Of a DNA stretch of 38,806 nt, positions 9,993-38,683 are shown one piece after another. The stretch is from assembly GCA_949290735.1 (NCBI GenBank), contig CASESV010000007.1, forward strand, positions 1-38,806, written 5' to 3'. The DNA comes from an uncultured Mycoplasmataceae bacterium. GTDB taxonomy: Bacteria; Bacillota_I; Bacilli_A; Mycoplasmatales; Mycoplasmoidaceae. Under the pieces are notes generated by a model. The model made no database searches, was not told where the DNA came from, and worked only from the letters and a program-made list of their open reading frames with translations. Every line of letters begins with the position of its first letter. The stretch's first letter is position 1. Position numbers and translations under genes: made by a program.

Positions 9993-11069
9993 ATGCAAAC
10001 ACATTTAAGACCAGATAATGATTCATTTAGAACACTATTCACAATAGCTGATTTTGATTTTGGATGATATCCATTTTTATTTATTATTGGTTTTTTTGTT
10101 TGTATTATCATTGCATCATTAGTAGCGAGATATAGATATAAAGTTTCATATGATATTATTTTATGGTTAAGTTTGATCATTATTCCATCAGCAATTTTAG
10201 GAGCGAGATTATGATCGGCTATGATTGGGGATTTAGATTGAAAAAATTTCTTTAAATTTCAAACGGGCGGACTTGCAATTCAAGGTGGAGTAGTATTTGC
10301 TTCTATTGCAAGTATTATCTTTTTATCCATTATTCTAAAAAAACCAAAATTTCATGTTAGAGTTGAATATAATGATTTAGTAAAAATTGAAAAACCATCA
10401 ATTTGAATTTTTATTGATATATTATTGCCATTAATTCTCTTCGGGCAAGCAATAGGAAGATGAGGTAATTTTTTTAATGGAGAAATATTTGGTCAACAAG
10501 TAAGTGCTGAATCATTAAATTGATTAAAAATTTTAATGCCAGGTGTATTTGATCATATGCAATGTGTTCAAGGTGATTTAGCTTTAGCAAATGGTTTAGT
10601 TAATGGAGCATATTATCAACCATTATTTTTATATGAATCAACAATTAATATTATTTTCTTTCTATTTATATATTTCTTGTTACCATCATTTAAAAAAATA
10701 AAAATAGGGGTAATAGGAAGTTCATATTTCATAATTTATGGAGTAATTAGATTTATTTTTGAACCATTAAGATTTCAATCATATGCTTTTGCAGGGACAT
10801 ATGTAATAAATTCAATACTATTGGTAACTGGTATTGTTTTAGTAATATTAACTCAATTTATTCTTCCAAAATATAGACATAAACAAATTTTATACATGAT
10901 TTGAATCAAATATATTAGATTTTACTTAATCAAAACCGGTATTAAATTAAAAATTAATAAAGCTATTGAATACACTTATCATGATAAAAATTTAGAAAAT
11001 TATGGTTTTGAAAAGAAATATGATTTTGATAGAGATAAAAATAATCCTATCTATTATGGTAATCGTTAA
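9993..11069 (+). CDS. lgt: Prolipoprotein diacylglyceryl transferase
   Basis: This 358-residue polytopic membrane enzyme transfers diacylglycerol from phosphatidylglycerol to the lipobox Cys of prolipoproteins. TGA codons throughout are Trp. It carries GGLAIQGG, the Lgt signature GRWGNFFNGEIFG (residues 155-167), YYQPLFLYEST and the late VIRFIFEPLR segment, with about seven hydrophobic helices. A charged C-terminal tail of about 60 residues (YTYHDKNLEN...) exceeds the usual family end. The start ATG lies 5 bases after the tilS stop without a nearby Shine-Dalgarno sequence, suggesting coupling to tilS. The next gene encodes a substrate-binding protein that itself lacks a lipobox. Confidence 0.95.
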
Positions 11070-17193: not shown

Positions 17194-17747
17194 TGAATGA
17201 TAAAATTCAAAATTCAACTGTTGATCTACTTAAGAGAATTAGTAGTGATGAAAGAAAATTATTTTCAATGTTAATTCAAAATAATTTCAAAAAATATTTA
17301 GATTTAAAGAAAGATATAAAAAGTATTTTATTTGTCTACAATTCGGATTTTGAACCTAATATTGAGCCAATTATACAAATGTGCAATGAATTAAAAATTG
17401 AATGTCATTGCTATTGTATTATAAGAAAAAAAGAAGATATAACACAAATTGATTTTAATAACCAGCAAATGCAATTTTTTAAATACACTAAACTACCATA
17501 TTATGATAATACTGAATCAAGTTTTAAGAAAGAATTTGATTTAGTATTTTTTCCTATTATGGCTTTTAATTCCAACAAAGAATGTATTGATTATGAATTT
17601 AAGATAAATTATGTAAGAATAATGAATTTACCACCTAAAACAATTAAATGTGCATATTGTTTTAGCATTCAAGAATATTTTGATCTTGACCAATGCAAAA
17701 ATAAATTTTTAGTTGATAATATTATAACTGAGTTAATTATCATTTAG
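17193..17747 (+). CDS. Divergent 5-formyltetrahydrofolate cyclo-ligase-like protein
   Basis: This 184-residue protein resembles the 5-formyltetrahydrofolate cyclo-ligase family in its C-terminal half: FDLVFFPIMAFNSNKECIDYE aligns with the DLVIVPGLAFD segment, CAYCFSIQEYF with the glutamine-containing strand, and the protein ends DNIITELIII where the family has a D..ITE. The glycine-rich GYGGGYYDR loop, which binds ATP and substrate, is replaced by DYEFKINYVR, so catalysis is doubtful. The start is a GTG at 17193 overlapping the permease stop, with AAGGAG at 17179-17184. The gene is the last of the transporter operon, and its end overlaps the convergent Z1 gene by 3-4 bases. Family assignment is moderate; function unknown. 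Confidence 0.6.
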   Translation: MNDKIQNSTVDLLKRISSDERKLFSMLIQNNFKKYLDLKKDIKSILFVYNSDFEPNIEPIIQMCNELKIECHCYCIIRKKEDITQIDFNNQQMQFFKYTKLPYYDNTESSFKKEFDLVFFPIMAFNSNKECIDYEFKINYVRIMNLPPKTIKCAYCFSIQEYFDLDQCKNKFLVDNIITELIII

Positions 17748-19810
17748 TCTTTCTTATTTTCAACATAATATTTACCACTAAAAATATTATCTTTTGGTAA
17801 ATGTAGAGAAACATAATATTTTAATTTATTATCTAATTTATCTCTAATTTTATGTAAACATATTATAACTTTATCATTAAGTCCATTAATTTTATATAAT
17901 GCTTGTTCACCAGGAAAGCCTGTGTCATCACTAGAACCTTCAAATAATTGGTATTTTCCATTTTCTGGTGTTCTTTCTCTATAGTTATTTTTACCTGCAT
18001 TATCAAAAAATAATATTACAAATTTATAAGCTTCTGCTTTCTTTTTTAGTTCTTGTCAAAAATAGTAATCAATTCCAATTGTTTCATAAATTTTATTTTC
18101 TTTAATTTGTTCACAAAAATCAAGAAAACTTAAATCTAATATACCTGTGTATGGTCTTGAAATGATATTTATATTATTTTTAGGTTTTTGATTAAAATGC
18201 AGATAAATCGATTTAGAATTTCTTTCCACTTCAATATCTCGTTCAACTCTAGAATCATAAAACAATATCTTATCATGGGCACTTCTTAATGTTCTTACTT
18301 TATTTGTTGGTGCTGACTTTCCACTCAATGAAATGTATTTTTCAAACTTTGTAAAATTATCATTTATTTCAGCATCTTTAAGTCGTTCTCATAATTCATT
18401 TTCACTTGGCATAATATATTCTTTGTATTGTTTATATAATGATGGGACAATGTATATAGTTAGACTATCTTTTATATGATTTCTATATCCAAATCATCTA
18501 GCTCTTTGTAGGATTGTATCAACAGCAGTTGTTCCTTCATGGAAATTAGTTATATATGTCAATAATAAATTATCTAATGTTACCCCACGTTCTACTTTTT
18601 TTGATCCAAGCACAATATTGTTAGTATTTTCAATTATTGAATCATCAGATTCAGAGTTGATAATATTAATATTTGTGTAGCTAATTATTTTTTTAATTAG
18701 ATTAATATATTCGTCATCTCATGTCAAAATATTAGCATATGAATTATCGAATATAGATTTAAATTTATTAGCTGTTTCAATATAATCTAATGAAGATTTA
18801 TCTTGATTTAAATAAAGATATAAATTATCCTTAAATTTAATTAATAGTCTCATAATTTTATAATGATCTTCAATTGCTATTGAAGTATGGATTAGCATTG
18901 TAGTAGGTTCTATTTTTTCATTTTTAATTATGAAATGTGAAATATTAATAATATATCTCATTACTGCTTCTTTTAATGATTCTGGAAGTTGTGTTATATC
19001 ATTATCATCTTTTCAATCATCAGCATTAATAAATTTAAAAAAAGAATCATCATTAAAAAATTCATTAATCCCCATATACCCATTTCCAGGTTCATATGTA
19101 AAAACATGTTTTGGTTTAACTGCATCATCATCATTAATCAATACTTGTGCTTGCGGAGTAGCTGTTACTGATAAATAATTATAATTTGAAAGAGATTCAA
19201 GCATATTTTTAATTGCATTATTTGCATATCTAACATCATCTATATCATTTGATCCTGTACTAGCTAAATCTGCTTCATCATCTACAATTAATATTTTTTT
19301 ATTTTTTCATATTTTATTTTCAAGAAAGACCTCATTGATTTTTTCTATTTGTTTATTTTTTAAAATGGTAATAATATATTTGTTTCCATTTTTTAAATCA
19401 TCTCTAATTTTTTCAATTCTTCTCGTTGTGTTTCTTATCATAAAAGCATCATAGTTATAAACACTAACCTTTGATGGATTATGTGAACAAAATACTTCTT
19501 TCATTCTTTCATTTGTCTGGTTGTTTAATAAATTTTCAATTGATGTAAGGATTACACATACATCATATCCTTTGTCAAAATATCTAGATATAACTCCACT
19601 AAATACAGTAGTTTTACCTGATTGTACTTTACCAACTAACATCCCAATATCTTTTCTTTTTACAGATAATTTTTCATGAATCTGTTTAGCCTTTTCTAAA
19701 TAATAATTTATAGCATCATTATCTAATCCACGTTTTTTTAAATATTTCACAAAAGTTTCACTAAAAGAACCAATTTCAAATAATTCTAATGCTTGCTTAT
19801 TATTTATCAT
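17744..19810 (-). CDS. Z1-domain superfamily 2 helicase-like protein
   Basis: This 688-residue protein has at least six TGA codons read as Trp. It shows a P-loop GKVQSGKT (residues 60-67), a DEAD-like motif ILIVDDEAD (177-181), a motif III TATPQ (216-220), and QRARWFGYR around Trp439, which is characteristic of the Z1 domain. Z1 proteins are superfamily 2 ATPases found in restriction-modification and defence neighbourhoods, usually beside GHKL ATPases, nucleases and methyltransferases. Here the start overlaps the upstream GHKL gene by 11 bases, so the two are translationally coupled. The last 100 residues (FVILFFDNAGKNNYRER...) have no recognised domain. No nuclease motif was recognised, and its end overlaps the convergent cyclo-ligase-like gene. 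Family is confident; function is inferred. Confidence 0.85.
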
Positions 19811-21248
19811 TATGTTCCCTCAATAATTTATTTATTTCATATTTTATTTGAGTTACTGGTGATCCATCTAATCTTGCGATACATTCTGCAATAGCATAAC
19901 AAATAACAAAGTGTTCTCATTTATGGATGAATTCTGGTTTATCTACAAGATCAACAAAATATGGATGATTAAGGTTTAATTTAAGATCATATTCATAAAT
20001 TTGTTCTAATCGTTCTTCATTAATTGGTATTAATTGTAGTCATTCATTTTTAATATCTTTTTGTTTTGATTTAATAAGATTCATTGTTATTTTTTTTCCA
20101 TCATCAGCTGTATATGTAAATCTTAGCTTATCCTTAATAATTTCAAAATCATCAAAATTACTAATTTTACCTGTCTCTTTAAAAATCTTTGTTAAGAAGC
20201 GTTTTGTTTCATTTAAATTATCATTTGAATCTAAAAACTTTTTAGTTGCAGTGGATTTTGGTTCAGTATGATTACTATTATTCACACTTTTGAATGGTAT
20301 AAGTTTTTCTTTAATCGAATCAATTATTTGGTTCATAGTTATTTCATCAAATACGACTGATGTTCTATATAAATCCATATAATTATCTTTAACTTGAATA
20401 TCAACAAAAATATTTTGATAATTAATGTTAAATCAAGGCGGAATAATTAGATTGTTTATTGGTGTATAGTATCTATCATTACAACTAAAAGCAATTCCAA
20501 AAATTTCTTTATTTTCACTATTTTTATAAATATTTGTAGTGAATGAAAGTTTTTTATTATCAACAAAAATTGATTCATTATCAACTATTAGTTTCATATC
20601 TGAATCATTACTAATAGTGATTTTTTTAATTTGATTAATAGCTTCAACCTTTTTATATTCTTTTTTTGAAACATCATAAGTTTGTTTATTATCCACATAT
20701 GTTACAATAATTGAAATATTATTTTTCTTAATTATTTTTTCAAATGCAAAAGCAATATATTGATATAAAGTGTGTGCATCATTAATACTTAATTTAAAAT
20801 CCACATTATCTATAGTTACTCTAAAACCACTAGAAAAAGTTCTCATCATTTCTGAGCTTTTAAAATATTCAATTGGTGCATATTCATTTGGTTCATTTAA
20901 TTTAACTGATGTTTTATATCCTTCATTAGTATCTTTTGATTCGATGGTAACAATATCTCCTAATCTAAAACAAGATGCAATAAATCCAATATTATAATTA
21001 TTTTTATAACTTTGTCATATTTTTGAAATATCAAAACACAATAACCCATTGCTATTATCCATAACTTGTATTCAGTTACCATCATTGTTTCAATAAACAA
21101 CAATTACACTTTTTTCATTTAAACTATCAGTGCTTTTAAAATTATCAATACTTTGATCTATAATTCTGCATACAGCAGAAAATGCGCCTAAATTAGTTTT
21201 TTTAAAACTCTTATAAATTTCAAAATCATCTATTTTTAATTTGTCCAT
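19800..21248 (-). CDS. GHKL ATPase of MutL/MORC (paraMORC) type
   Basis: This 482-residue protein reads through at least four TGA codons as Trp. The N-terminal fold motifs are in the order expected for GHKL ATPases: FSAVCRIIDQSIDN (residues 23-36), the Asp64 motif VMDNSNGL, and IGFIASCFRLGDIVTIESK (87 onwards), then SSGFRVTIDNV. This arrangement is very like prokaryotic MORC-type proteins, known from restriction-modification neighbourhoods with superfamily 2 helicases. Position 28 is Arg and position 32 is Gln where most relatives have the catalytic Glu and the magnesium-binding Asn, so ATP hydrolysis may be altered. The gene heads the two-gene minus-strand operon, with Z1 overlapping its last 11 bases. 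Confidence 0.75.
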
Positions 21249-32483: not shown

Positions 32484-34427
32484 ATGTTTAAATTAATTAC
32501 CGATAAAGTGCCAAGTGGTGATCAACCAAAAGCAATCGAATCAATAATTGATAATTTTAAAAAAACTAAATCACAAGTACTATTAGGAGCTACTGGGACT
32601 GGTAAAACTTTTACTATAGCCAATATTATTAATAAAATTCAGAAAAAAACATTAATAATGGTTCACAACAAAACATTAGCTGGACAATTATATCAAGAAA
32701 TAAAAGCATTATTTCCACAAAACAGAGTTGAATATTTTGTCTCTTACTTTGATTTTTACCAACCAGAAGCATATTTACCAAGTTCAGATACATACATTGA
32801 AAAATCATCAAAAGCAAATCAAGAAATAGAAATGATGCGTTTATCAACATTAAACTCCTTAGCTTCTTATGATGACGTTATTGTTGTTGCATCTGTTGCT
32901 GCAATTTATGCATCTGTATCAAAAGCTCAATTTAAGGAGTTTCAAAGCTATTTGCATGTTAATCAAGAATATGGTCTAGATAAATTGAAATCCACACTTG
33001 TTAACTTAAAATATCAATTTAATAATGTAGATTTAAAACCAGGTACTTTTAGAGTTAAAGGTGATATTGTTGATATAGCATACGGATATACTGATGAGTA
33101 CATTATTAGAATATCTTTTTTTGGAGATACTATAGAAAAAATTACTAAAATAGAACCTTTGACAGGTAAGGTTATAGAAAATTTAAAAGGCATTATAATT
33201 TCACCAGCTGAAGAATATATTGCAGATATTTATAAATCAAAAGATGCTTTTGAATCTATAGAAGAAGAGTTAAAAGAAAGAATTAAATATTTTAAATTAA
33301 ATGAAAAACTTATTGAAGCACAAAGAATTGAACAAAGAACTAAATATGATTTAGAAGCAATAAAAGAATTTGGATTTTGTTCTGGAATTGAAAATTATGC
33401 TCGTCATTTTGAACATCGTAAGCCAGGAGAAACACCATATACAATATTAGATTTTTATGGTGATGATTGGTTGTTAGTTATTGATGAATCACATATTTCA
33501 TTACCACAATTTAGAGGAATGTATGAAACAGATAAATCTAGAAAAACAACATTAGTAGAATATGGATTTAGATTACCATCGGCATTAGATAATAGACCAT
33601 TAAAATTTGATGAAATGCAATCAAAGATGGATAAAGTTATTTATGTTAGTGCAACTCCTAATGAATGAGAAATAAATGAAAGTAAAAATTATGTTGTTGA
33701 ACAAATTGTTAGACCAACATTTTTATTGGACCCAGAAATCGAAATAAGACCAACAAAAAATCAAATTGATGATTTAATAAACGAATTATTTAATCAAAGA
33801 AAACAAAATAATAAAACTTTTATTTCTGTAATGACGATTAGAATGGCTGAAGAATTAACAGATCTTTTACAATTAAGAGGATTTAAAATTGCATATCTTC
33901 ATAATGAATTAAAAACTCTTGAAAGATCAAGAATCTTAAATGATTTAAGAAGAGATAAATATGAAGCTATAGTAGGAATTAATTTACTAAGAGAAGGTAT
34001 TGATGTTCCTGAAGTTAGCTTAGTTACTATTTTTGATGCTGATAAACCAGGTTTATTTAGGAATGAAAAATCATTAATTCAAATGATTGGAAGAGCTGCA
34101 AGAAATATTAATGGAAGAGTTATCATGTATGGTGATGAAGTTACTAAAGATATGAAAAAAGCAATTGACGAAACAAATAGAAGAAGGCAAATACAAATTG
34201 AATACAATAAACAACACAATATTACTCCAAAAACTATTTCAAAACCAATTCATAATGATCTAGATTATTTTGATATTGATGAAAAAACTACAAAGAAAAA
34301 CAAAACACTTTCTATTAAACAATTAAAAGCAATGATGTTAAAAGCTGCTAAAAATCAAGAATACGAACTAGCTGCTGAATTGAGGGATCAAATAATCAAA
34401 ATATCAGAATCTAAATTATCTGAATAA
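32484..34427 (+). CDS. uvrB: Excinuclease ABC subunit B
   Basis: This 647-residue DNA-damage recognition helicase works with UvrA and UvrC in nucleotide excision repair. It has Walker A GATGTGKT (35-42), the beta-hairpin region [37 protein letters not shown] (TGA is Trp), [25 protein letters not shown], and a C-terminal UVR domain [19 protein letters not shown]. Length is near the usual 650-670. AAGAGG at 32472-32477 supports ATG 32484. uvrA and uvrC are not in the window. Its end overlaps the convergent gene at 34416 by 12 bases. Confidence 0.97.
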
Positions 34428-35276
34428 TGATAAATCAAATTGTTCTTTTTGTATTTCGTATTCTCCACGAACTTTTTCTTTTATTTGTAAACATAAAAGA
34501 ATTAATGATGCTAATAAGCAAGCTCCACTAAATAAAAATAAACTAAGTGATGCAAAAAATAAAACCCTAACATCATTTACTTTATTATTGAAAGCCAATT
34601 CATTATTAAAACTTTCTAAATTTAATTTAACTAAATTATTTATTTCATTAATATTATTTCTACTATCATTTATTTTTGTTCTATCATCTTCTTTCTTTAA
34701 GATTTCTTCAATAAGTGAATATTCTTGTTCATAACTATTAAATTGATTTTTTAAAGTATTTAAATTTTGAATTTGTGTTGCAATAGATTTTGATCTTTCA
34801 TTCATAAAATCATTTAATTGTTTATATTTAGGATTTAAGCTACTCACAGTTGTTTTTAAAAAATCTTGAAAAGTTATTTGATTATTGTAAGTATTAAGAT
34901 TTTTACTAGCATTTTCTACAGAAGCACTATTAATTTTTGTTGCATTATTTCAACCGATAGATAAATTAACATTCACTTTAAAAATAGAATTATTTAAATT
35001 GTATTTATCTATCAGTGTTATATTAAAAGTCTTACCACTTTGAGTATCCATAGAAGCTTTTCGAGATTTTATATTATCTATATCTAGAACTCATGGTTTT
35101 ATTAATTCTTGATTATCTGTATTATTTTGAGCTAAAGCATAATATGTAATGTTTGTGTTTACATTTAATGTGAATCCAAATAAACAAATAAGACCAGCAG
35201 CAAATGTACTACCAAAAAATAATGATAAGATCAAAGTTGCTAATTTATATTTTTTGTATCTAGTTTCGAAAGCCAT
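34416..35276 (-). CDS. Two-helix membrane protein with central coiled-coil region, unknown
   Basis: This 286-residue protein, read through TGA codons as Trp, is not recognised as any family. It has one hydrophobic helix near the N-terminus (about residues 12-37), an outside-facing region of about 200 residues rich in Asn, Ser and Lys with heptad-like helices in its second half ([20 protein letters not shown]...), and a second helix at about residues 237-263, followed by a short charged cytoplasmic tail ([18 protein letters not shown]). It is transcribed divergently from the transglutaminase-like gene across an 80-base spacer and converges on uvrB with a 12-base overlap. A surface-anchoring or secretion role is only a guess. 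Confidence 0.7.
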
Positions 35277-35329: not shown

Positions 35330-35356
35330 TAATAAATTAAAAAATAAGGTATTTAT

Positions 35357-38300
35357 ATGAAAAAAATTAAATCGAAACTAATATTAATTGGTTCTATGTG
35401 TTCATTAATATTGGGGTTAACAATAATTCCAATAGTTTTAGTTTCATTATCTAATGCTAAAAAAGCTGTTGCATCTAATGAAAAACCGTTTAATATATCA
35501 TTTAAAACATCTAATGATTTTATAGATTTAGAATTTAGTAATAAATTAGCATCAAGTGTTGATGCAATGTTTATTAAAAAACAAGTAATAAATAATAAAG
35601 AAAAAATATTTAATAATGCCGATCAAAAAAATGATGATTTTTATGATCAAAATTTAGTTATTAGTAATATTAATTCAAATGATTATGATGGCACTGTAAC
35701 TTTTAAATTAGAACTTAATAATTGTAATAGTAATAATGAAAGTATTAGCAAACCCTTTAAATTTACCGGCTTTCAAATAAATAACCAAAATAATTATTAT
35801 ACAATTTCATTCAATGAAACCACAACTTATAACTATGGTGATCAAAATTATTATGCATCAGATTCAACTATATCATCAACCTGAATTAAAAATAAACTAA
35901 TTGCAAATAAAGGGTATGTTTTTAAAACTAATAATCTTTCATCAAGTTATAATTGAAATGCTAATTTAAACATTTCTTCTATTTTACCTAATGATGATGA
36001 AGGTAAATTAACTTTTGTAGCAACATTAAATGAAGCTACAAATGATCCAAGTAAATCATCAATAATTGAAAAAAAATTAACATTTACAGGCTTTTCTAAA
36101 ATACAACCACCTAATCCAGATGAAATTATTATTGATGATAATCCAAATGACATTCCAAGTGATAGACCAGGAAAGGAACCTATTACACAAGAAGAAATTA
36201 AGTGAGGGAATGTTTTACTTCCAAAAGTTGACGATAACAAAATTACAATGGATGATCTAGTAGAAATGCTAGATAAACATATTGGAAATATGAATTATGT
36301 TGAAGTGACTTTCGGAGAAAGAAGAATTAATGCATCATTAATGGCAGATGCTTTTGCAAAATGAATTACAACAAGATGAAAATATTTTCCTTATTTAGCA
36401 TTTTCAAACCCAGTATTTAAAATCAATATCAAAGATGAATCAGGACAAGAAATTTCATGAAAAAATAGAGATTGAAATAATGAAGCAACAATGAATGAAA
36501 CATTTTATGTTCACTCATTATCTACATATAAAGGAGCAATATTTGATTATTATGCTGATAAATGATTAAATCAAGGTTTCTATAAAGATTCATTTATTGA
36601 GTTTGTAAATAATTTTTTGAATCTTATAAGTCATGATATGAGTGGTATTGATAAAGCATGAACTGCATACTATTATGTAGCGAATTATTTAAATTATGAA
36701 GATTCATCTTCAATCGAGGCAACAATAGTAAATCATAAAGGAGTATGTGCTGACTATGCAAGTTTAATGTCTTTATTATGTAATATTGTAGGTGTTCCAT
36801 CACTTCCAATGGTTACTTCTCATAATAATATAAATTATTCAGCAATGCATGAAATTGTTTGAGTTTATATTGATGATTTATTAGGAACAAATACTAAAAA
36901 ATGATATGCAATGGATCCTACATTTGCTTATGGAAGAAATGGAAGTTACAATGCTCCAATTTCATTTTGAGCAACCAATTTAATTCTTGAAAATGTCATA
37001 TTTAATTTTTCTTCTAACCCATATGAGATCTATCCATCTGATGAACACTATAATTCAAATTTATTTTTTAATGTTCCTTGAAAAAAACTATATGATAATA
37101 ATTCACTAGAAACTAGAAAAATTCCTGATACTTTGGTAAGTACAAAATATAACTACAAGAGTAATCCTGTATATTATGATGGTTATTGATATTATTATTG
37201 TTATGATAATAAATATCAAACAGATAGCAGGAATAATAATAAATTGGTAAGATCTAAATTTGTAACATCTAATACTTATGAAGTTGTAATTGATTTTGGT
37301 AATCCTTCAAATCCTGATCCAAACAAGTTTGGATTTAATGTAAGCAATGAAATATGCAACATCTTTAAATGATTTAGCCAATCTTCTTTTAGATATCATT
37401 CATTTGGTTATAATGAGAAGATTGTTTTAGCTACAAATGTTAAAAAAACTGATCTTGATAATTCAGTAAAATTTTTAATTATTGATTTAAAAACTAAAGA
37501 ATGTAAGTTGATTAACCAAACGTTTGAGTATCATAAAGCAACATTAAGAGATTTTAATTTCTATATTAAAGATGGAAATATATACTATACATCCAATCCT
37601 TATGGTGAGGGACAAAATTTATGAAAAAACAAAACATATTCAAAACTTGATTTAACTAGTGAAGAATATGGCTTTTTAAACTCAACAAGTGATAATAATT
37701 CTAAATTATATAGAAAAATATTACTATATAGAACTATTGCAAGTACATATATGATTGGTACAGATCCAGTTAATAATGTTTCTAAAGAATCAAAAAAAGA
37801 GTTTTTACAATATTTGTATAATTTAGAGCAAGAATTAAATAATGGTCAAATTAAAAATTTCGATGATACTATAAAACAACTCGAAATAAAATATAATTCA
37901 TTTATTCCAAAAATTACTAGTGAAGGAATTATTAAAATGAATGAATTAAGTGATGTTTATCAATATGAAGAAGATTATGTAAATCAAATTGATGCATTAC
38001 CGCTAAATAAATTACTACTAATTGATAATTTATCTGACTTAATTAGCAATAATAACAATATTGCTTTTGATATTTATCATTCTAAATCAAAAAGTGGTAA
38101 CTTTAAAAAAGTTAGAGAAGAGCTTTATTTAGATAGTACAGGAATTAATGTTAGATTAAAGGATGTTGATGGTAGTTATCAAGGATATTATTATTTTGAA
38201 TATTATCCATATGGTTTGAATAATGAAAAAAAACGTACTAAAACTTTTGAAATTCAAATAGTAAAAACAAAAACATTACCTGATTATGAAGGTTTATTTT

Positions 38301-38683
38301 CACAATCTAAAAAGAATACAAATTATTATGACAATAGTAAGAATTGATATGAAAATAAAATAGCTTTAAATATCACATTACACAACATGTTAAATATTAA
38401 AAATGAAATTACATTAAAACTTAAGTATTTAAATCCAGAAACAAAACAAGAAATTGTTTTGGATACTTTAAAATTGAATAAAGGTAATTCTTCAATAACA
38501 CATAAATGAGCTATTGATAAACCATCAAAAAATAATCACGGTATTTATTGAATAGAATATGATACCATTTTCAATGAAAAAACAGCTAAATTCTATTCTA
38601 ATTTTTATTATCATTTTACAAAGGATGATATTGATAACTTTGATGTGAGTAAATGATCAACTTTGTCAAATATGATAAGATAG
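35357..38683 (+). CDS. Large surface protein with transglutaminase-like core and lipoprotein-type repeats
   Basis: This 1108-residue protein reads through many TGA codons as Trp. Residues 8-32 form a signal or anchor helix; Cys15 lies in it but GSMC is not a standard lipobox. Two N-terminal repeats end with GTVTFKLEL...KFTGFQ and GKLTFVATL...TFTGFS, close to the mycoplasma lipoprotein-17 domain pattern. A transglutaminase-like (papain-fold) core follows with Cys464 in HKGVCADYASL, His498 in AMHEIVWV and Asp520 in WYAMDPTFAYG. The remaining 580 residues have no domain I recognise and are Asn, Ser and Tyr rich. It should be exported by SecA and act on the surface; cross-linking or protease activity is inferred. 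Ends in a weak terminator. Confidence 0.8.

What the first reader, a model, noticed from the sequence alone, without database searches (positions are those of the whole stretch)
35357..38683. Large secreted transglutaminase-like protein with lipoprotein-type repeats
A Cys464-His498-Asp520 core follows two repeats typical of variable mycoplasma surface lipoproteins, in a 1108-residue protein without a standard lipobox. The 580-residue C-terminal part is uncharacterised. It could modify host or own surface proteins.
Basis: partly seen in the sequence, partly recalled or inferred. Interest (0 to 1): 0.6.

Follow-up and report, generated by a model that had tools for sequence, protein, structure and literature searches.

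The report
Mycoplasma surface enzyme, transglutaminase-protease fold
A gut-type mycoplasma encodes a large cell-surface protein with the catalytic core of the transglutaminase/cysteine-protease superfamily; it belongs to a widespread but little-studied mycoplasma lipoprotein family, and this copy has lost the cysteine that would anchor it with a lipid.

Summary
ORF 35357-38683 (+, TGA=Trp) encodes 1108 aa with a Pfam Transglut_core hit (E=1.3e-8, above cut-off) and Cys464/His498/Asp520, invariant in every relative whose core was aligned. Two ~100-aa repeats precede it. They do not hit Lipoprotein_17 themselves, but the aligned repeats of close relatives do (to 5e-12). The ~500-aa C-terminus matches no family and is conserved as one unit.

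Relatives occur patchily in Mycoplasmatales (34 of 320 genomes searched), with signs of horizontal transfer; the genome also holds a 39%-identical paralogue. Eleven of 13 family members with a readable N-terminus have a true lipobox. In the window protein the lipobox cysteine is Leu31 (TTA; relatives TGT), although lgt is present (in the window). No type I signal peptidase was found, so an uncleaved signal anchor fits better than free secretion.

Best reading: a membrane-anchored surface cysteine enzyme, more likely a protease or amidase than a cross-linker, acting on host mucosal proteins. Some relatives lie beside an M60 peptidase or a PL8 lyase gene, but this genome showed no M60. Activity is untested and the core could not be modelled reliably. 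New member of a known kind; interest modest.

The parts
35357..38683 (+). Gene for the 1108-aa transglutaminase-core surface protein (code 4)
35346..35349 (+). AAGG, possible ribosome-binding site 7 bases before the ATG
   Evidence: sequence; inference
35378..35449 (+). Hydrophobic signal/anchor segment, residues 8-31 (only strong N-terminal hydrophobic stretch)
   Evidence: hydropathy
35447..35449 (+). Codon TTA = Leu31 at the position of the lipobox Cys (TGT in the two same-genus relatives)
35489..35773 (+). Repeat 1 (about residues 45-139), diverged Lipoprotein_17-type
   Evidence: modelled with pLDDT mostly 70-87
35798..36094 (+). Repeat 2 (about residues 148-246), diverged Lipoprotein_17-type
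   Evidence: modelled with pLDDT mostly 75-90
36203..36598 (+). Conserved module before the core (residues 283-414, from the WGNV motif)
   Evidence: 90% identical to same-genus relative L006, 66-78% to the other close relatives, 36% to the paralogue
36635..36919 (+). Transglut_core domain (residues 427-521)
   Evidence: Pfam PF01841 E=1.3e-8
36746..36748 (+). Catalytic Cys464 in GVCADY
36848..36850 (+). Catalytic His498 in MHEIVWV
36914..36916 (+). Catalytic Asp520 in KWYAMDPTF
37157..38680 (+). C-terminal region (residues 601-1108), strand-rich, tandem Ig/FN3-like towards the end at low confidence; no Pfam family

Best explanation
It is a surface-exposed ectoenzyme of the transglutaminase/papain-like cysteine superfamily. 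The N-terminal hydrophobic segment takes it through Sec and most likely stays as an uncleaved membrane anchor, replacing the ancestral lipid anchor. Two Lipoprotein_17-type repeats act as a stalk or variable exposed part. The Cys464-His498-Asp520 centre attacks an amide bond in an extracellular protein through a thioester intermediate, and the C-terminal strand-rich region binds the substrate or partner proteins. The most likely net reaction is hydrolysis (protease, isopeptidase or deamidase) of host mucosal or immune proteins, rather than cross-linking. Shown by sequence: gene, domain match, conserved triad, repeats, family distribution, lipobox loss. Inferred: topology, chemistry, substrate, and the roles of repeats and C-terminus.
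For: Pfam Transglut_core in the window protein and in every other relative scanned that contains the core. Cys, His and Asp invariant in every relative whose core was aligned, down to about 25% identity. Strong constraint on the core: 91% aa identity at residues 415-560 against L081, with conserved codons agreeing at the third base only about 70% of the time. Lipobox in 11 of 13 family members with a readable N-terminus. lgt encoded in the window, no type I signal peptidase found. Gene neighbours in relatives: M60 enhancin-like peptidase beside L083 and L085, polysaccharide lyase 8 near L081. Precedent for a lipid-anchored form and an uncleaved-signal homologue: M. hominis P120/P120', and P80 (PMC539234).
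Against: No activity data. The core was not modelled with confidence (mean pLDDT 48.6) and its fold search gave no transglutaminase. M60 and Lyase_8 were not found in this genome (the Lyase_8 control did not ring, so that absence is weak). PF01841 includes enzymes with measured transglutaminase activity such as TgpA (PMC3507681), so hydrolysis is not favoured by sequence alone.
Confidence: 0.5

Rival explanations
1. A true transglutaminase: it cross-links glutamine to lysine, or attaches amines, on host matrix or the cell's own surface proteins.
For: PF01841 match and full Cys-His-Asp triad. A membrane-bound bacterial PF01841 protein, TgpA of P. aeruginosa, has transglutaminase activity in vitro (PMC3507681).
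Against: The superfamily contains many hydrolases (PMC10318531); nothing in the sequence selects cross-linking. No sequence similarity to any solved transglutaminase was detected.
Confidence: 0.2
2. A processing enzyme for the mycoplasma's own surface: it trims or sheds neighbouring lipoproteins.
For: Same compartment as the Lipoprotein_17 proteins, of which the genome has 12 matches. Mycoplasma surface antigens are known to be processed and released (PMC539234). PF06035-type transglutaminase-like proteases cut adhesins in other bacteria (background knowledge).
Against: Patchy presence, 12 of 95 family genomes, argues against a housekeeping role. Neighbouring genes in relatives point to host substrates.
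Confidence: 0.17
3. A catalytically idle binding protein that uses the transglutaminase fold as an adhesin scaffold.
For: Large non-catalytic portions; inactive members of the superfamily exist (PMC10318531).
Against: All three catalytic residues and their motifs are invariant across diverged relatives, which an idle scaffold would not need.
Confidence: 0.08

Closest known systems
Full-length relatives in uncultured Mycoplasma/Ureaplasma genomes (L081-L087, e.g. Candidatus Ureaplasma intestinipullorum)
   Same: Same order of parts: N-terminal signal, Lipoprotein_17-type repeats, conserved module, transglutaminase core with triad, ~500-aa C-terminus; 54-68% overall identity.
   Different: They keep the lipobox Cys, except L081, and L085 whose N-terminus is missing; two or three repeats.
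Paralogue in the same genome (G000 C3, L022:5115-7823, 902 aa)
   Same: 39% identity over residues 255-1104, same triad and C-terminus.
   Different: Has a lipobox (VSSC) and lacks the repeats.
Pfam PF01841 Transglut_core proteins of other Mycoplasmatales
   Same: Transglutaminase core; 72 of 298 genomes sampled. IPR002931 was reported as 100% present in ruminant and 0% in pig and human mycoplasmas of one study (PMC5293770).
   Different: The more distant long relatives are only about 12-35% identical segment by segment; many matches cover the core alone.
TgpA of Pseudomonas aeruginosa
   Same: Membrane-anchored extracytoplasmic PF01841 domain (PMC3507681).
   Different: Multi-pass membrane protein with DUF3488; no repeats or comparable C-terminus.
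M. hominis P120' and P80
   Same: Mycoplasma surface proteins with an uncleaved signal sequence instead of a lipid anchor, P120' being a homologue of a lipoprotein (PMC539234).
   Different: Not known as enzymes of this family; resemblance in anchoring only.

Membership tests
Transglutaminase-like superfamily, PF01841 | Profile match above curated cut-off | tested here: met
   35.5 bits against 23
Transglutaminase-like superfamily, PF01841 | Ordered Cys-His-Asp triad, conserved in relatives | tested here: met
   Invariant in all aligned relatives
Transglutaminase-like superfamily, PF01841 | Papain-like fold of the core | tested here: inconclusive
   Model pLDDT 48.6; the predicted order (Cys just before a helix, then strands carrying His and preceding Asp) is as expected, but Foldseek gave no significant match
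Transglutaminase (enzyme EC 2.3.2.13) | Gln-Lys cross-linking activity | not testable with these tools
   No activity data
Lipoprotein_17 (PF04200) surface proteins | Profile match of the repeats | tested here: inconclusive
   No match in the window protein; matches in aligned repeats of relatives, over cut-off in L083 and L087
Bacterial lipoproteins | Lipobox with modified Cys | tested here: not met
   Leu31 where relatives have Cys; Cys15 lies in GSMC, which does not match
Freely secreted proteins | Signal peptidase I cleavage | tested here: inconclusive
   AVA-S at residues 37-40 could be a site, but no PF10502 peptidase was found in a 95.6% complete genome

The most novel reading that the evidence does not exclude
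A horizontally mobile family of mycoplasma surface cysteine enzymes with a new C-terminal substrate-recognition region cuts or modifies a specific host mucosal or immune protein, and lineages switch it between lipid-anchored and peptide-anchored (possibly releasable) forms by losing the lipobox.
Probability: 0.15. Interest if true: 0.6.

Novelty: new member of a known kind. Interest (0 to 1): 0.3.

Why it matters
Mycoplasmas have few recognised extracellular enzymes. A conserved, patchily distributed family with an intact catalytic triad in gut mycoplasmas and ureaplasmas is a concrete candidate for how they act on host surfaces, and the lipobox loss gives a natural comparison of anchoring modes.

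Tried and rejected
Direct Lipoprotein_17 match in the window protein: none up to E=1; replaced by the test on relatives. PDB sequence search with the single protein, the full alignment and the core alignment: no match. Full-length AlphaFold model from 9 sequences: mean pLDDT 55, core below 50; Foldseek best E=1.3e-3, Ig/FN3-like sandwiches (biofilm, receptor and antibody chains), not interpreted further. Core-only model: pLDDT 48.6, Foldseek uninformative. Viral and plasmid carriage: no relative in viral contigs or plasmids. M60 and Lyase_8 in this genome: not found. Literature: one paper on the domain in mycoplasmas, no functional study found in the held library. First genome contigs attempt failed because fragments diluted the alignment. 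The near-identity of L006 to the window at residues 361-405 (98% nt) was not used as evidence of recombination, because it lies at the end of a metagenomic contig and may be an assembly chimera.

Full report
Observation. The ORF at 35357-38683 (+) is open under code 4 with 20 TGA=Trp codons and gives 1108 aa. Order-1 Markov copies of the window never exceeded 187 codons. Pfam finds one domain, Transglut_core, at residues 427-521 with E=1.3e-8. The two repeats before the core align to each other at 35% identity, far outside shuffles. They fail Pfam Lipoprotein_17 on their own, yet the corresponding repeats of relatives hit it at up to 5e-12, so calling them diverged Lipoprotein_17-type repeats is justified. 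The genome has 12 Lipoprotein_17 matches elsewhere.

Family. The genome holds one paralogue, 902 aa, 39% identical over residues 255-1104, with a lipobox and without repeats. Full-length or partial relatives occur in 12 of 95 genomes of the same family and 34 of 320 of the order; some of these partial matches cover only the repeats or only the core. The bare core occurs in 72 of 298. Named records are uncultured Mycoplasma and Ureaplasma genomes, including Candidatus Ureaplasma intestinipullorum, a name that occurs in a chicken-gut study (PMC8035907). All three catalytic residues are invariant in every relative in which they could be aligned. Among the close relatives the N-terminal repeat region diverges fastest (33-54% identity where well covered), while residues 415-560 keep 61-91%. 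There, conserved codons agree at the third base only about 70% of the time against L081, which is what purifying selection on the protein gives.

Horizontal transfer. UvrB of the window organism is 65% identical to same-genus G004 but 50-52% to G318 and G296 of another family. Residues 281-560 of the transglutaminase protein, however, are 78-81% identical to G318 and 70-74% to G004. In the protein tree L082, which has the same sequence as the G296 copy (L093), branches with two Ureaplasma-type sequences (87/99 support). Together with the patchy distribution this favours gene transfer, with the caveat that these are mostly metagenomic bins.

Anchor. Eleven of 13 family members with a readable N-terminus carry a lipobox. 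The window protein has Leu31 (TTA) exactly there, against TGT in two same-genus relatives; L081 has lost it too. Whether this was one loss or two is open, because the relation of the window sequence to L081 and L006 is not resolved; L006, the closest relative over residues 281-414, keeps the Cys. The lipid-transfer gene lgt lies in the window itself at 9993-11069, so the organism should still modify lipoproteins. No type I signal peptidase was detected. LspA was not detected either, so such absences need care. M. hominis provides a precedent: P120 is a lipoprotein and P120' its homologue with an uncleaved signal sequence (PMC539234). A membrane-anchored ectoprotein is therefore the simplest reading; free secretion is possible but unsupported.

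Mechanism. The superfamily does amide chemistry through a thioester on the Cys; its members include cross-linking enzymes, deamidases, proteases and inactive proteins (PMC10318531, PMC3507681). Sequence cannot decide among these. Hydrolysis is preferred here because it is common in bacterial members (background knowledge) and because two relatives sit beside an M60 enhancin-like peptidase gene and one near a polysaccharide lyase 8 gene, enzymes usually aimed at host mucus or matrix (background knowledge). This is circumstantial: those genes were not found in this genome, and the window contig ends 123 bases after the gene, so its own right-hand neighbour is unknown. The C-terminal 500 residues have no family but are conserved as one unit down to the paralogue, which suggests a functional part, perhaps substrate binding. 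The structure models are too weak to say more.

Novelty. The domain is known in mycoplasmas (PMC5293770), and this is a new member of a known kind with an untested function. The family-wide architecture and the lipobox loss appear undescribed in the papers that could be searched, but most subscription literature is not held. Interest 0.3.

Noticed in passing
window 17744-21248 (-): Two adjacent genes: a Z1-domain/ResIII helicase-like protein (688 aa) and a 482-aa protein without a Pfam match; may be part of a restriction or defence locus.
   Followed up: no
window 34416-35276 (-): 286-aa protein with hydrophobic segments near both ends and a probable coiled-coil middle, transcribed divergently from the transglutaminase gene; no family over cut-off.
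   Followed up: partly
whole genome G000: No PF01252 (LspA) match in a genome with lgt and clear lipoboxes; a gap in the assembly or a very diverged enzyme.
   Followed up: no
L006 1501-2733 against window 36437-36571: About 98% nucleotide identity over residues 361-405 next to a region of about 60-70%, at the end of a metagenomic contig: recombination or chimera.
   Followed up: partly
L083:8652-12848 and L085:2707-6897: About 1400-aa M60 enhancin-like peptidase genes directly downstream of the transglutaminase gene in two Ureaplasma-type genomes.
   Followed up: partly
G276: Twelve transglutaminase-core matches in one mycoplasma genome, an unusual expansion.
   Followed up: no
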